From an uncultured Rhodospirillales bacterium (GTDB taxonomy: Bacteria; Pseudomonadota; Alphaproteobacteria; Azospirillales; Azospirillaceae), in the NCBI GenBank assembly GCA_903927615.1, contig CAIYNU010000087.1, forward strand, positions 62,001 to 126,000: a stretch of DNA of 64,000 bases, given 5' to 3'. Positions 47,194 to 55,540 of this stretch are shown here, in pieces (positions within the stretch are counted from its first letter, which is position 1; each line of letters starts with the position of its first letter). The notes below the pieces were generated by a model. That model was not told where the DNA came from, did no database searches, and was given only the letters and a program-made list of their open reading frames with translations. The position numbers were made by a program, and so were the translations under genes.

Positions 47194-47269
47194 GTCCCCT
47201 TCGTCTAGAGGCCTAGGACACCGCCCTCTCACGGCGGTAACAGGGGTTCGAATCCCCTAGGGGACGCCA
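47194..47269 (+). tRNA. tRNA-Glu (anticodon CTC), CCA encoded
   Basis: GTCCCCTTCGTCTAGAGGCCTAGGACACCGCCCTCTCACGGCGGTAACAGGGGTTCGAATCCCCTAGGGGACGCCA. Confidence 0.95.
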
Positions 47270-47341
47270 ATTCCGTTGACGACAGAAAACCGTCAACGAA
47301 TTCAGCGGCCTAATCGGTACACGTTTTTGGCTTCCCCGTCG

Positions 47342-47384: not shown

Positions 47385-48350
47385 TCACTGTATACATTCC
47401 ATAGGCGCGGCGACCTGTCGCGCCGAGTGTCGTGCATCAGTGAGGATGGCGCGCGCCTCTTTCTTTGCCTGCACCTTGATGGCGTCGGCCGCATCGGCGG
47501 CCACCTTGGCATCGGCCATCGCGCGCTTGGCTTCTGCGATGGCGACCCTTGACTTCATCGCCGCCGCTTCGGCCATCGCCTCACGATTCGTGGCCGCCTG
47601 TACCGTCACGGAAGCCGCCTCCGCATGCCGAACGAGTTCGGCGGTGGTCCGCGCCGCCGCTTGCTCCGTCTGCCACGCAACACGGGTGAGCCGTCGTTTC
47701 TGTGGTCCCAGGCGAGCAAGGCCGCAGGGCAAACCAACGGCGTGCCAGTAGGAGTCTTGCCAGGCGCGCATCGCCTCTTTGTAAGCACGGTCGCCGACCG
47801 CGTTCGCGGCCTTGCCGTCCGTGCCACCTCCCTTGGCCACACGAACCGCAGCGTCCTTCGCCGTCCATCCTGGATGCAGGCGCTTCGCCCGCATCTCGGG
47901 GTCATCGGGGAGCACGATGGCATGAAGGTGAGGGTGGGCTTCGTCCGTGTGCATGACCACGGACGCGAGTTGCCCGCCGAACTGATTCCGCAGCCACGCG
48001 ACGGTTCGAGCCTGCCAATCTTTCAGGAGGTCGGCTCCGTTCGCGTCGCCTTGCATCTGTTCCCAGGTCATCGGATACGAGGTAACCACCGTCGCAAGGG
48101 TGTGCTGGTCCTGTCGAATTTTCCGCGCCTTGCCCGCCGCCTCCGTCATCGCCGTGGCTGCCTTTGCGTCGTGAACCTCACGCGAGTCGGCCAACGGCGC
48201 CCCGTAAACCAACGTCGGCGCCATCGGCACGGCAACATGCTGGCAGGCATGGAGACAACGATAGGCCTCGTCAACGACGAAAGATGTTGACCGACCGTGC
48301 TTATCGGGTTCGCGTGAAAATGTTTCGAGATGAATGAACTGATAGCCCAT
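47385..48350 (-). CDS. MobV/Pre-family plasmid mobilization relaxase
   Basis: MGYQFIHLETFSR; HTDEAHPHLHAIVLP matches the HxDExxPHxH motif; Ala-rich coiled C-terminus. Confidence 0.8.
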   Translation of the reverse strand: MGYQFIHLETFSREPDKHGRSTSFVVDEAYRCLHACQHVAVPMAPTLVYGAPLADSREVHDAKAATAMTEAAGKARKIRQDQHTLATVVTSYPMTWEQMQGDANGADLLKDWQARTVAWLRNQFGGQLASVVMHTDEAHPHLHAIVLPDDPEMRAKRLHPGWTAKDAAVRVAKGGGTDGKAANAVGDRAYKEAMRAWQDSYWHAVGLPCGLARLGPQKRRLTRVAWQTEQAAARTTAELVRHAEAASVTVQAATNREAMAEAAAMKSRVAIAEAKRAMADAKVAADAADAIKVQAKKEARAILTDARHSARQVAAPMECIQ

Positions 48351-48563
48351 ATTAACCTCCCATGAACAGTATCACAGGATAAACCAGCAGGTTGCAAGAA
48401 AGTCGTAGTGACCGACTACCGCTATTACATAGCTGTCGGCCCTGCGGGGCGTCTCATGGGGCTTCGCCCCGCCGACGCCTCCCCTTATTTCACTCGCCGT
48501 GAGGGCGTTCCTCTGGGAACGTTGTTCCCAGTGGCGTACGTGAGCATGGTAGCAGGCAAGTCG

Positions 48564-48866
48564 TCAAGGTACGGCCCGCCCACGCTCGCAAGCTGCGCGC
48601 GGGTCCCCGAGGTCGACCTTGACGATAACGACGTGATGGCCGCTGTTCGCCTCCCGATGGTCGGCTTCCCACAAGCGCATTACAGGAACTTCAATCATTG
48701 GCAGTAGTCCCCAGGGCACCCAGGCAGCCCGTGGTCCGTCTCCGTAGATAACCCATAACAAGAGAGCAAAAATTAATAGCCGAAGGCCATCAAATTCTGG
48801 CGCAGACAGGATGTCGCGGACGATAATATCAGTATATTCTGGGGCGTCGGGCGCTCGCTTTTTCAT
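48564..48866 (-). CDS. Small hypothetical protein with one TM segment
   Basis: MKKRAPDAPEYTDIIVRDILSAPEFDGLRLLIFALLLWVIYG; plausible only. Confidence 0.35.
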   Translation of the reverse strand: MKKRAPDAPEYTDIIVRDILSAPEFDGLRLLIFALLLWVIYGDGPRAAWVPWGLLPMIEVPVMRLWEADHREANSGHHVVIVKVDLGDPRAACERGRAVP

Positions 48867-49236
48867 CATGCGCACGTAAACCGCTAGAGGTTTCTTATAT
48901 ATAATAACAATATGATGCTCAGACAAAATTCTTACAAATATTTTTTCTTTTGAAAAGAGATAGGTGCGGGGCCGTGATTATGTAAAAGGCATATTCCACT
49001 AGCTCATCCATGGAAGTTAATGCTACAATGTCTATCATGGCATACTCCAACAAAATCTAACAAGTCATATATTATCACTAATCGATGAATCATACAACGC
49101 CATACCTGCAACAAGATTGGCTTGAGCGCTGTTTCAAAAAAACAATCGGAGCAAATCGCCAATGCGTGTCAAGTCATCGCGCCTTTGGAACACTCAACAG
49201 CGAGCCGCCAAAAAATTTTAATCTAAATGCTAACAT

Positions 49237-51696
49237 TCAAATTCCAAAACCTTTCGCACGAAAACAGCTAATCACATTTTGAACCTCATTATCTCTCGAA
49301 AAACGATCGGCCGCCCTATTTGTAAGTGTAGACATCTTATCCCTCTGAGAGATAGATAGCTGCCCATTACATTCTAAAAATTTTATTGTCCCTCTAAGTA
49401 ATGAAACGTATGGCTGGACGGCAATTCGAGACCACGACGCTTCAAGGTCAATGGCATCACACAAACAATTGAAGGCTTCATTGTAACTATAAGTTATCGA
49501 GTAACCTTCCACATCCATCTGTGTCATTAATACTTTGCCAAGAGTCGTCAGTGTATGTGGGTGCCTTTCGATTGATACGGCGTGACGAGCATATCTACAA
49601 GACATTTCAAGGTAATTTTTACGATCTTCAATGATTGTCAGTCTAAAATATTTCGCGAGATTAAGAAGAGCAACCTGCTCCCAATACCGTGAGTTCCATT
49701 GCCACGCTTTTTGAGCCTGCGAATAAAACTTTTCAGAATTATTCTTCAGTAAATTTGCGACGACATCGTCATAATTAAATAGGCGGCCTACCAATCGGGA
49801 TTCAGGTGACCGTTGCATTATACTTCTTCTATTTACAAGCGACGAAATATGTTTCGAAAGCGAAACAAATATGTCTAGAAGCCTATCCTCGTCTTCTTCC
49901 GATGCTTTTTCCAACACAAGCTGAGCTAGAGTCGCATTTTCAGGGGCAACAAAATTCCTCTCTAAATCACAATATGCGAGCGGTAGTGGGTGATTGCCTC
50001 CAATTTGTAGTCTCAGGCCCGGCGGCCCTAAGGCTCCAATAAGAATTTCGTAGCGTAGCCCTCCCCGAAAGCAATGATACGCTAATGCTGTCATTATATA
50101 TCGATTCTTGTCAATATCAGATGATGCGGCAATCACGTCTCTGACAATACGATCTAGCGGATTGAAGTCATTCGTAATCCGACAGCAAGCAATCGCGATA
50201 GGCTCGTGGCTTACGCTAGTAACGAATTTTGCTCTATGTCTTATGACGGAAGGATTTGATACGATGCCGTACTCAATATATTTATCAATCAGCCGTTCAA
50301 TCTCAACACGCTGCAACTTAGTATCATGAATTATTCGGCAGTTGATACCAGATAATACTTGCCTGATGTAATCAAAGCGATAATTTCTCTCCGCTGCAAC
50401 AATAACGACATCTTGTTTTTCGAGTCTATTAATCATATCTGCAACAGCAGTAACCCGATCCGCAAAGTTATCAACAACCAGTACAACTGGCCCATCAATT
50501 AAATCTATTGCGCTCGCAGTATAAGAAGAAAGGCGACTGATGGCTGAGCAGATTAATGTTCGGTATCCGCGCCTAGCCAATTCAAACGCAGTGCGCCTAA
50601 GAACAGTAGTTTTTCCACTTCCTGGGATTTCAGAAAGAAGTATAATACGATTGACGCTGTCGGTTCTACCTAGCACTTTCTCAGCGCTATCCAACAACTC
50701 AGTAACAATCGGCCGCGAAATATCCTTGCCTGTTGCAATGTCCATCCATGAAGGCACGTGCCCGTACATAAACCTTGATATATACTGAGCGCTTGGCGTG
50801 TCAGATGGCACTAATTCAAAATCAGCGCTAAACGCCAAGGCAACTGACTTTGAAAGAGATGCGTGCAATAGACTCTGCATTTCATGAGGAACTAACTCTA
50901 ATGGCGTCGGCCTATGTGGCAAAATAGTTGCGCAATATTCAAAAAAATCGCGTGAATGGCCAACGAAATGCAAAAGATTATGCTTTGCGCACATACTGTG
51001 AGTGACTTCATCATCCACAGCCTCAACAATTATCGAAGGGCCTCGATCATCCCTCGAAGAAATATTAGTCCTGTGCGCGAGATAGAAATCAAGGTCGAAC
51101 TCATCCAGTGACGTTCCAGATATAATGAAAGGTTCGCTTTGCAAAAATTGCGCAAGCACAGTCATCCAATGACTTATATTTCTTATCTGACTTATGTATT
51201 CGTTTCTTGAAAATACATACCCCTTGCTGGCCGACAACACGCACCCATGGAGGTGTACAATAGGAAGTTCGCATAGATTTTGAGCTTCCTGAAAGTCATC
51301 GCTATAATGAATTGAAATACACTGTTGGCGCGAGTTATTTATCGAATAGACTTTCTCTAGTATATTGTCGACGTTCCATGTAAATATCCGCCGCCAGATA
51401 AATGATGATATTAATTCAGCAGTACGCCCTGGCGTGCCGCACTGGAATCGCTTTGTTACATATTCATCTATTTCTTTGTCAGTTAGTAGAGAATATACAC
51501 GCTGGAGCGTATGTGAATTACTTATCGACTTAAGTTTGCATAGCTCATCCCTAAAGGCGTTGCCACTCGGAAAAAGGCCAAAGTCATTGGTTGAATCCAT
51601 GCTTGCGCCAGCGCCGAGTAACAGATTGTACTGTCCAGACCGTAGGGCAGATAGAAACGCGGCTTTCTGCTGGGCGGTAATGTTTTTGAATGCCAT
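49237..51696 (-). CDS. SIR2-like domain fused to STAND-like P-loop NTPase and helical (TPR-like) C-terminus; putative anti-phage defense protein
   Basis: SIR2 motifs LLLGAGASMDSTNDFG, TWNVDNILEKVY, VHLHGCV, IISGTSLDEFDLDF; Walker A LSEIPGSGKTTVLRRTA; Walker B-like GPVVLVVDNFAD; helical C-terminus. Confidence 0.8.
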   Translation of the reverse strand: MAFKNITAQQKAAFLSALRSGQYNLLLGAGASMDSTNDFGLFPSGNAFRDELCKLKSISNSHTLQRVYSLLTDKEIDEYVTKRFQCGTPGRTAELISSFIWRRIFTWNVDNILEKVYSINNSRQQCISIHYSDDFQEAQNLCELPIVHLHGCVLSASKGYVFSRNEYISQIRNISHWMTVLAQFLQSEPFIISGTSLDEFDLDFYLAHRTNISSRDDRGPSIIVEAVDDEVTHSMCAKHNLLHFVGHSRDFFEYCATILPHRPTPLELVPHEMQSLLHASLSKSVALAFSADFELVPSDTPSAQYISRFMYGHVPSWMDIATGKDISRPIVTELLDSAEKVLGRTDSVNRIILLSEIPGSGKTTVLRRTAFELARRGYRTLICSAISRLSSYTASAIDLIDGPVVLVVDNFADRVTAVADMINRLEKQDVVIVAAERNYRFDYIRQVLSGINCRIIHDTKLQRVEIERLIDKYIEYGIVSNPSVIRHRAKFVTSVSHEPIAIACCRITNDFNPLDRIVRDVIAASSDIDKNRYIMTALAYHCFRGGLRYEILIGALGPPGLRLQIGGNHPLPLAYCDLERNFVAPENATLAQLVLEKASEEDEDRLLDIFVSLSKHISSLVNRRSIMQRSPESRLVGRLFNYDDVVANLLKNNSEKFYSQAQKAWQWNSRYWEQVALLNLAKYFRLTIIEDRKNYLEMSCRYARHAVSIERHPHTLTTLGKVLMTQMDVEGYSITYSYNEAFNCLCDAIDLEASWSRIAVQPYVSLLRGTIKFLECNGQLSISQRDKMSTLTNRAADRFSRDNEVQNVISCFRAKGFGI

Positions 51697-51917: not shown

Positions 51918-52373
51918 ATGGGTAGAGAACGAATTGGCACCCCCCCCCTAGGGGATGCCACGTTTTTTCGAATGCCCACGAATTTCTGGTCCACTTTCGG
52001 TCCAATCGCCTCCGAGACAGGGGGGCACGGACCAACGGCCAAGAGCACATCGAACGACAACGCGACAGACCCCGCCACGGGCGGGCCGTTGACTGCGGGA
52101 GTCGTCTACCGCGGCGCGGCGCAATACCGGGCGCGAACGCTGGACGACGGCAAACGGGTGGGAAAGGCCTTCGCGACGGCGAAGGATGTCGCGGCGTGGC
52201 TTCGACAAAGAAATCGTGGTTGCCGCCCGCGTGTCGGGCCTGTGGACGGCGCAGCGCGCCAACTCCGGGCACGCCTCACCACCCCTGTCCGGATGTCGGA
52301 AAGGGTGGTGAGGCCATATCAGCTGCGTAGCCCGGGGGCTTCCTGCCCGGTCCGCGCCACGTATTCCGTATAG
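51918..52373 (+). pseudogene. Possible N-terminal fragment of a tyrosine recombinase (integrase)
   Basis: VVYRGAAQYRARTLDDGKRVGKAFATAKDVAAWLRQ resembles integrase arm-binding domains; no catalytic domain in the ORF. Confidence 0.3.
52273..52314 (-). terminator. Hairpin terminator of the ABC-F gene (12-bp perfect stem gcctcaccaccc/gggtggtgaggc)
   Basis: Immediately 3' of the minus-strand ABC-F stop codon. Confidence 0.65.
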
Positions 52374-54562: not shown

Positions 54563-55540
54563 GTGGTAGACCTCGCGAAAATTGGCGCAACACTTTTAGG
54601 AGCTGGAAAAGGCGCGCTGGAGGCGGTGGCTCAACAGACTCTCAAATTCTATAAAGATAAAGTTGAAATCAGAGCCCAGAGTAACGCAAATTTTTTGTCC
54701 ACCAAGGACGAAGCGGAACTTCTGGAAGTGGCCGTTGGCGCCGAATTCCGTTTGACGAGGCCGGTGGCGCAAGCCGCGATCACTGAAGTCTGCCATGAAA
54801 AGGGAATTACCCGCGAAAATATCGTTAGAGAGAAAGCGTTGCTGGACATTCGGGACATCACCGAACAAGGTGCGTTCGTTGATCCTGATCAGTATCAAAA
54901 ATTGGTCGGAAAAATAGAGGCCAAATACGACCTGTCGGCGCAACACGCAAAAGAAATTTGTGACTCGGTGATGACGCAGAACCACATTAAGCTGGCCGAC
55001 GGCCGGGAAGACGGCGCCGATGACGATGACGATGAGGGGGCCGAGGCCTCTGGCGACGATGACGGGGCGGACGGGGCGGACGAGGAGGAGGAGGAGGACG
55101 AGGACGAGGACGAGGAGGAGGACGAGGAGGAGGACGGCGAAGGCAGCTCCGGCGATGGAGGAGAATCCGACGAGGCTGGCGAGGACGAGGCCGCCGAGGT
55201 GCCTTTCGTCAATCTTGCGAATTTGGAAGCGTACCTGGACGAGCTTGACGACGCGGCGGTTGTGGCGATCTGCGAATATCTTGAAATCGACACTTCCGGT
55301 GATGCCGATTCATTGAAATCTGCCATCCTCGCTTATGGCGGCGAAACCGATGACGATGAGGCGGCAAGAGCTGCACTTTCCGAAGCGATCGACGCAGACA
55401 TTGATCGCAGCGATCGGCAATGGCTTAAGGTCGTGTGCAATAATTTCGATTTAAGCAGCTCCGGGACTACTGATGCCCTTAAATCACGCCTCTATTACTT
55501 TATTTTTGATGGAGAGGCGGTCTCTGAAGATCAGGAATAA
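54563..55540 (+). CDS. Hypothetical protein with long Asp/Glu-rich tract and two SAP-like C-terminal segments
   Basis: VDLAKIGATLLGAGKGALEAVAQQ; acidic run DEEEEEDEDEDEEEDEEEDGE; LDDAAVVAICEYLEIDTSGDADSLKSAI and DRQWLKVVCNNFDLSSSGTTDALKSRLYYFIF. Confidence 0.7.
   Translation: MVDLAKIGATLLGAGKGALEAVAQQTLKFYKDKVEIRAQSNANFLSTKDEAELLEVAVGAEFRLTRPVAQAAITEVCHEKGITRENIVREKALLDIRDITEQGAFVDPDQYQKLVGKIEAKYDLSAQHAKEICDSVMTQNHIKLADGREDGADDDDDEGAEASGDDDGADGADEEEEEDEDEDEEEDEEEDGEGSSGDGGESDEAGEDEAAEVPFVNLANLEAYLDELDDAAVVAICEYLEIDTSGDADSLKSAILAYGGETDDDEAARAALSEAIDADIDRSDRQWLKVVCNNFDLSSSGTTDALKSRLYYFIFDGEAVSEDQE

What the first reader, a model, noticed from the sequence alone, without database searches (positions are those of the whole stretch)
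49237..51696. Single-gene SIR2-STAND candidate anti-phage system in a small tRNA island
The 820-aa product (from MAFKNITAQQ) has SIR2-like NADase motifs (GAGAS, TxNxDxxLE, VHLHG, GTSLDEFD). These are followed by a P-loop NTPase (EIPGSGKTTVLRR, VVLVVDNFAD) and a helical/TPR-like C-terminus (RHPHTLTTLGKVLM...). An effector, NTPase switch and sensor repeat layout is that of STAND defense proteins (Avs5-type SIR2-STAND is the closest named class). The gene is much more AT-rich than its surroundings, has no obvious partner gene, and sits beside a relaxase. Whether it belongs to Avs5 or to a separate SIR2-NTPase clade cannot be told from the sequence alone.
Basis: partly seen in the sequence, partly recalled or inferred. 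Interest (0 to 1): 0.8.

Follow-up and report, generated by a model that had tools for sequence, protein, structure and literature searches.

The report
Avs5-like SIR2-STAND phage-defence gene
A single foreign gene next to a tRNA encodes a three-part protein that most likely senses phage infection and then destroys the cell's NAD+; it belongs to a deep side-branch of the known Avs5 immune receptors, and relatives of it sit inside prophages.

Summary
A complete 819-aa ORF lies at 49237-51696 on the MINUS strand. Its GC is 43% against 62% around it. It encodes a SIR2_2 domain, a STAND P-loop NTPase and a C-terminal helical array (model pLDDT 83.5). The STAND domain is Pfam nSTAND_NTPase5 at 78 bits; the nSTAND3 domain of Avs5 stays below its cut-off. 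The top two PDB matches, by profile and by fold, are the two Avs5 filaments: 9jap (EfAvs5) and the 9nah/9nc9 sequence (AVAST5). The gene therefore belongs to the Avs5-like SIR2-STAND superfamily. It lies outside the EfAvs5 clade in a tree, keeps the HG motif instead of NG, and is not recognised by PADLOC's Avs5 model. I read it as a new clade ('short SIR2-nSTAND5'), not as Avs5 proper. Full-length relatives (51%, 35%, 35%) are in Rhizobium freirei and two prophages, one at the P2 defence-hotspot position. In R. freirei and R. tropici one tRNA-Thr slot holds two very different short-class members. In the window the gene and a small-plasmid-type relaxase lie in a 4.7-kb segment bounded by a direct repeat of the tRNA-Glu 3' end. 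Anti-phage NADase function is strongly inferred but untested. New variant of a known kind.

The parts
47194..47269 (+). tRNA-Glu (CTC), integration target of the island
   Evidence: ARAGORN; homology to genus relative G049 runs through ubiE and the tRNA and stops exactly at 47269; in relative G047 a DUF6538 integrase lies directly after the tRNA-Glu (CTC)
47254..47269 (+). left att-like copy CCCCTAGGGGACGCCA (tRNA 3' end)
   Evidence: direct repeat; 0 expected in shuffles
47385..48350 (-). MobV / Mob_Pre-type mobilisation relaxase, 321 aa, of the kind carried by small mobilisable plasmids
   Evidence: Pfam Mob_Pre above cut-off, NCBIfam MobV 47.8 bits below cut-off; best plasmid relatives 34-48% identical on 2.5-7 kb plasmids
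49237..51696 (-). SIR2-nSTAND5 gene, 819 aa, single-gene immune receptor candidate
   Evidence: ORF and translation; Pfam; model pLDDT 83.5; PDB fold matches to Avs5
50923..51696 (-). residues 1-258: SIR2 NADase effector, alpha/beta fold; N108, D110, H150, G151, E199 conserved
   Evidence: Pfam SIR2_2; invariant in the inner clade; model
50368..50778 (-). residues 307-443: STAND NTPase (nSTAND_NTPase5); Walker A core PGSGKTT 358-364, Walker B D409, conserved R437
   Evidence: Pfam PF25199 78 bits; alignment A4
49843..50367 (-). residues 444-618: mixed helical region with a short beta hairpin, probable winged-helix/arm part of the STAND module
   Evidence: model secondary structure; domain assignment is inference
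49240..49842 (-). residues 619-819: C-terminal paired-helix (TPR-like) array, putative sensor; conserved WNSRYWEQ 667-674, most variable tail 726-819
   Evidence: model helices 642-817; conservation by region
51945..51960 (+). right att-like copy CCCCTAGGGGATGCCA
   Evidence: homology to genus relatives resumes at 52314 with ABC-F

Best explanation
The gene is a self-contained abortive-infection immune receptor of the Avs5-like SIR2-STAND type, carried into the chromosome on a small mobile element inserted at tRNA-Glu. Most likely mechanism: (1) the C-terminal helical array binds a phage component (inferred; ligand unknown); (2) the STAND NTPase, ATP-loaded, releases the closed monomer and drives oligomerisation, probably a filament as in the two solved Avs5 proteins (inferred from homology); [quoted passage not shown] the catalytic residues are shown to be conserved). 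Shown here: domain order, conserved active-site and Walker residues, purifying selection in the class, horizontal origin, prophage and tRNA-hotspot carriage of relatives. It forms its own clade and should be called 'Avs5-like, short SIR2-nSTAND5 clade' rather than Avs5.
For: SIR2_2 plus nSTAND5 over cut-off; all 12 members of short-class alignment A2 match both families. The A2 profile matches 9jap at E 4.6e-35 over SIR2, NTPase and C-terminus, and 9nah at 3.5e-23. AlphaFold2 pLDDT 83.5 with three modules. Foldseek ranks 1-5 are EfAvs5 and AVAST5 filaments. Residues needed in PaAvs5-1 (N110, D112, E202; G362, K363; R438; PMC12931631) correspond to conserved N108, D110, E199, G361, K362, R437 (correspondence by motif). 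Relatives lie in prophages: L116 beside a lambda-type portal and S49 peptidase, L117 after a gpP-like terminase and a portal, the P2 cos-proximal position that holds defence genes in E. coli (PMC9122126). The same tRNA-Thr slot in R. freirei and R. tropici carries different short-class genes. Purifying selection: dN 0.012 against dS 0.178 for L039/L040.
Against: No phage assay, ligand or NADase assay. Global fold agreement is modest (TM 0.36, rmsd about 26 A), perhaps because domains are arranged differently in a monomer model and a filament; pTM is 0.57. The first glycine of Walker A is lost in this clade (EIPGSGKT). No dense defence island surrounds the gene. The closest relatives share only 35-51% identity, so genomic evidence for the inner clade rests on four loci.
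Confidence: 0.82

Rival explanations
1. It is simply an Avs5 protein: one more clade of an already broad family whose published clade representatives are themselves only 18-21% identical.
For: Best PDB matches by profile and fold are both Avs5. Published Avs5 clade representatives share 18-21% identity, as low as the 14-22% seen here between the window protein and the outer short-class members. EfAvs5-like proteins also score about 29-33 bits on nSTAND5, just below its cut-off.
Against: nSTAND3 below cut-off (21.7 against 27.2) while nSTAND5 is 78 bits; PADLOC Avs5 model silent; tree separates it from EfAvs5-like proteins with 100/100, and holding the inner clade with them is disfavoured (AU p 0.010); HG instead of NG.
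Confidence: 0.35
2. It defends against plasmids or other mobile elements, or lets its own element exclude rivals, instead of acting against lytic phages.
For: It travels with a small-plasmid relaxase on an integrated element; relatives of the family are on plasmids as well as prophages.
Against: The closest relatives outside bacterial chromosomes are in prophages, one at a known anti-phage hotspot position; experimentally studied Avs5 proteins act on phages (PMC12931631).
Confidence: 0.1
3. It is a decaying cargo gene without function in this host.
For: No relative at E<=1e-8 in the other 82 genomes of the order searched; no integrase was found in the segment; GC very unlike the host.
Against: Intact 819 codons colinear with the R. 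freirei and prophage proteins, catalytic residues all kept; no stops or frameshifts.
Confidence: 0.06
4. It is a metabolic or regulatory sirtuin with a P-loop domain, unrelated to immunity.
For: SIR2 proteins include deacetylases; no assay has been done.
Against: SIR2_2 type, fused to a STAND NTPase and helical repeats; nearest structures are Avs5, then SAMD9, DSR2 and ThsA; sporadic, foreign, prophage-borne.
Confidence: 0.02

Closest known systems
EfAvs5 (AVAST type 5, SIR2-STAND), PDB 9jap
   Same: Single protein; SIR2_2, STAND NTPase, helical C-terminus; profile match over all three parts (E 4.6e-35); first fold match.
   Different: About 13% identity in the fold match; EfAvs5-like genes have NG in place of HG (A6 consensus HING), score nSTAND3 and nSTAND5 about equally, and form a separate clade.
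AVAST5 filament protein, PDB 9nah/9nc9
   Same: SIR2-STAND protein that forms a helical filament; profile E 3.5e-23; second fold match.
   Different: 769 aa; sequence profile aligns mainly over SIR2 and NTPase.
PaAvs5-1 (Muralidharan et al. 2026, PMC12931631)
   Same: Same domain order; SIR2 N/D/E and Walker A residues needed for immunity have counterparts here.
Long SIR2-nSTAND5 proteins (about 1030-1050 aa; own genome C55:5273-8413, Acinetobacter, Vibrio, Klebsiella plasmids)
   Same: SIR2_2 plus nSTAND5 over cut-off; nearest other class in the tree; also AT-rich against their flanks.
   Different: About 220 more residues: a longer TPR region and, in some members, a cold-shock-like C-terminal domain (below cut-off); 17-22% identity.
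ThsA (Thoeris) and DSR2
   Same: SIR2_2 NADase effector domain.
   Different: No STAND NTPase; ThsA is switched on by a TIR-made nucleotide, DSR2 by tail-tube protein through helical repeats (established knowledge).

Membership tests
Avs5 (AVAST type 5) | N-terminal SIR2_2 (PF13289) effector | tested here: met
   44.4 bits, cut-off 24.5
Avs5 (AVAST type 5) | Central nSTAND3 NTPase (PF20720), as described for PaAvs5 (PMC12931631) | tested here: not met
   21.7 bits, cut-off 27.2; nSTAND_NTPase5 scores 78.3 instead. EfAvs5-like proteins score both, so this feature is not sharp
Avs5 (AVAST type 5) | C-terminal helical repeats as sensor | tested here: met
   Paired helices 642-817 in the model; role as sensor not tested
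Avs5 (AVAST type 5) | Single-gene system | tested here: met
   No conserved partner gene at the window, L017, L116 or L117
Avs5 (AVAST type 5) | Matched by PADLOC Avs5 model PDLC02170 | tested here: not met
   No match listed up to E=1; but EfAvs5-like L109-L112 are also missed, so the model is narrow
Avs5 (AVAST type 5) | Phylogenetic placement inside an Avs5 clade | tested here: inconclusive
Avs5 (AVAST type 5) | Closest solved structures are Avs5 | tested here: met
   Foldseek ranks 1-5; profile search ranks 1-2
Avs5 (AVAST type 5) | Filament formation, NAD+ hydrolysis and phage immunity | not testable with these tools
   Needs protein and phage assays
SIR2-nSTAND5 class (short form, defined here) | SIR2_2 plus PF25199, total about 810-870 aa, W-x-Q motif in the C-terminal array | tested here: met
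   W672 and Q674 invariant in A2
Thoeris ThsA | SIR2 plus SLOG domain and a TIR partner gene | tested here: not met
   Only the SIR2 part of ThsA models matches; no SLOG in Pfam; no TIR gene seen nearby
DSR1/DSR2 | SIR2 plus long helical repeats without NTPase | tested here: not met
   STAND NTPase present; no PADLOC DSR match for the window protein

The most novel reading that the evidence does not exclude
SIR2-nSTAND5 proteins are a separate family of immune receptors beside Avs5, with a short form (about 820 aa) and a long form (about 1040 aa, some with a cold-shock-like nucleic-acid-binding tail), spread over many phyla and prophages. Divergent members replace each other at one tRNA slot. 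Their triggers would be new.
Probability: 0.45. Interest if true: 0.6.

Novelty: new variant of a known kind. Interest (0 to 1): 0.45.

Why it matters
Avs5 specificity is set by poorly conserved sensor regions, and only one trigger (JADA) was found in the papers read here. A deep sister clade with the classical HG catalytic motif, carried by prophages and swapped at a tRNA slot, gives a natural set of effector-matched, sensor-divergent proteins with which to map what SIR2-STAND receptors recognise. Current tools miss it: PADLOC-DB 2.0.0 has no model that recognises the window protein as Avs5, and the plasmid relatives checked are named only 'SIR2 family protein'.

Tried and rejected
Truncated long-form protein: rejected, because the full-length relatives of 808-821 aa are colinear. 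Thoeris or DSR: only the SIR2 part matches. Integrase remnant in the ORF at 51918-52373: looked plausible by eye, but no Pfam match, and tblastn shows only the overlap with the end of the ABC-F gene; dropped. Clean empty site in the genus: not obtained; G049 keeps ubiE-tRNA and G048/G049 keep ABC-F, but on separate contigs with other DNA beyond. Close-relative scans with the single protein in genome contigs, viral contigs and phages found nothing; an alignment query was needed. PADLOC Avs5 search over 399 genomes rang nowhere, controls included, so it says nothing. The Avs5 filament paper PMC11897194 is not held.

Full report
OBSERVATION. The ORF exists as described but on the minus strand: 49237-51696, 819 aa plus stop, start MAFKNITAQQ. 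The frame is open for 12 more codons upstream (to 51732), but the R. freirei relative aligns from the same start. GC is 0.427 and GC3 0.39; ubiE and ABC-F on either side have GC3 0.81-0.82. The 1-kb profile drops from about 0.65 to 0.41-0.45 here.

DOMAINS. Pfam: SIR2_2 PF13289 44.4 bits over 103-230; nSTAND_NTPase5 PF25199 78.3 bits over 307-443; nSTAND3 PF20720 21.7 bits, below its cut-off of 27.2. PADLOC gives weak ThsA matches to the SIR2 part and no Avs5 match. An AlphaFold2 model from 24 window and related sequences (alignment A5) has mean pLDDT 83.5 and pTM 0.57: an alpha/beta domain to residue 258, a P-loop domain about 317-460, a mixed helical region, and paired helices from 642 to 817 at pLDDT mostly about 90.

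WHAT IT RESEMBLES. Foldseek against the PDB puts 9jap, 'Helical structure of EfAvs5 (SIR2-STAND)', first (E 4.2e-23) and 9nc9, 'Helical assembly of AVAST5 filament', second; human SAMD9, then DSR2 and ThsA follow. Independently, a profile of twelve short-class proteins (alignment A2) matches 9jap at 4.6e-35 over SIR2, NTPase and C-terminus, and 9nah at 3.5e-23. Profile-profile comparison of the inner clade with EfAvs5-like proteins gives 96.5% probability over residues 6-482. The TM-score is low (0.36), so the agreement is by module, not by overall pose.

RESIDUES. PaAvs5-1 needs N110, D112 and E202 of SIR2, G362 and K363 of Walker A, and R438 in part (PMC12931631). By motif these correspond to N108, D110, E199, G361, K362 and R437, all invariant in the inner clade. 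The catalytic position is HG (H150) here; EfAvs5-like genes have NG (A6 consensus HING), as does PaAvs5-1. The first glycine of Walker A is absent (EIPGSGKT); the GxGKT core is kept.

FAMILY. No other genome of the order among 83 searched has a relative at E<=1e-8; none is in the phage record collection. An alignment-based scan of 85,462 species genomes gave 80 loci. They fall into two size classes, about 810-870 aa and about 1030-1050 aa, nearly all AT-rich against their flanks. The closest is Rhizobium freirei PRF 81 (51% identity, full length, 817 aa). Scans of viral contigs added two full-length relatives at 35%. The tree puts window, R. freirei, L116 and L117 in one clade (100/100), the long class in another (100/100), and EfAvs5-like proteins behind a 100/100 branch; the short class as a whole is only moderately supported (87/91). 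Holding the inner clade together with EfAvs5-like proteins is disfavoured (AU p 0.010). EcAvs5 and PaAvs5 sequences could not be added, and one 9nah-like row has a very long branch, so the rank of this clade (fifth Avs5 clade, or sister family) is open.

CONTEXT. L117: the gene follows a gpP-like terminase and a portal gene in the same direction. In P2-like phages the cos-proximal region between gpA and the portal gene gpQ is a hotspot of anti-phage systems (PMC9122126); only the portal side could be seen here. L116: beside a lambda-family portal protein and an S49 peptidase. L118 and L119, more distant short-class members, are also in viral contigs. R. freirei (L017) and R. tropici (L039, and L040) share 86-91% identical flanks on both sides of one slot 10 bp from a tRNA-Thr 3' end; R. 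freirei carries the window's clade there, R. tropici a different short-class gene that is about 17-18% identical to the window's. R. tropici also keeps an ORF with a DUF6538 domain in the slot, the domain found in the integrase beside tRNA-Glu in G047. tRNA genes lie within 2 kb of 11 of 60 family genes (215 kb scanned) against 8 tRNAs in 485 kb further out; three of the eleven share one site, so this is suggestive only.

THE WINDOW'S ELEMENT. The tRNA-Glu 3' end (47254-47269) recurs at 51945-51960, 15 of 16 bases. Between them lie only a MobV-type relaxase (relatives on 2.5-7 kb plasmids, best 48% in Sinorhizobium meliloti) and the SIR2-STAND gene. Genus relative G049 is homologous up to the last base of the tRNA and then differs; G047 has an integrase directly after this tRNA type. 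The segment looks like an integrated small mobilisable element that has no integrase of its own; this is inference.

MECHANISM. Shown: three modules, conserved catalytic and nucleotide-binding residues, purifying selection in the short class (dN 0.012, dS 0.178 for L039/L040), foreign origin, prophage carriage of relatives. Inferred from Avs5: ligand binding by the C-terminal array, ATP-dependent oligomerisation, NAD+ hydrolysis, arrest of infection. The last 94 residues are the least conserved part (19-26% between sub-clades, 7% invariant, against 37% for 661-725), which fits a sensor under diversifying pressure but could also be a neutral tail.

VERDICT. Avs5-like SIR2-STAND receptor, new clade; new variant of a known kind; function not tested.

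Noticed in passing
L010 5273-8413 (-) = own genome contig C55: The same genome carries a second, long-form SIR2-nSTAND5 protein (1046 aa). By reading alone it lies near a recombinase and a large primase/helicase-like protein (L010 2046-4673) that resembles a TOTE conflict-system protein.
   Followed up: partly
L011 3297-5333 (+) = own genome contig C47: A third nSTAND5-like P-loop protein (678 aa) without a SIR2 domain, beside an AT-rich membrane-protein-like ORF.
   Followed up: no
L014 1489-2538 and L016 (genome G160, contig C108): A short-class-like SIR2-nSTAND5 gene appears split in two, with a transposase-like ORF directly after the first half.
   Followed up: no
window 47276-47299: A perfect 7-bp inverted repeat (GTTGACG...CGTCAAC) directly after the tRNA-Glu at the left end of the element; terminator or recombination site not decided.
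   Followed up: no
window 48567-48926 (-) and 48408-48707 (+): Small overlapping ORFs between relaxase and SIR2-STAND gene without Pfam match; probably not genes.
   Followed up: partly
P0002-P0004 C-termini (L007, L008, L009): Plasmid-borne long-form members end in a cold-shock-like region (CSD 20.3 bits in P0002, below cut-off), which would suit a nucleic-acid sensor.
   Followed up: no
window 54563-55540 (+): 325-aa ORF with a long Asp/Glu-rich tract, next to the ABC-F gene.
   Followed up: no
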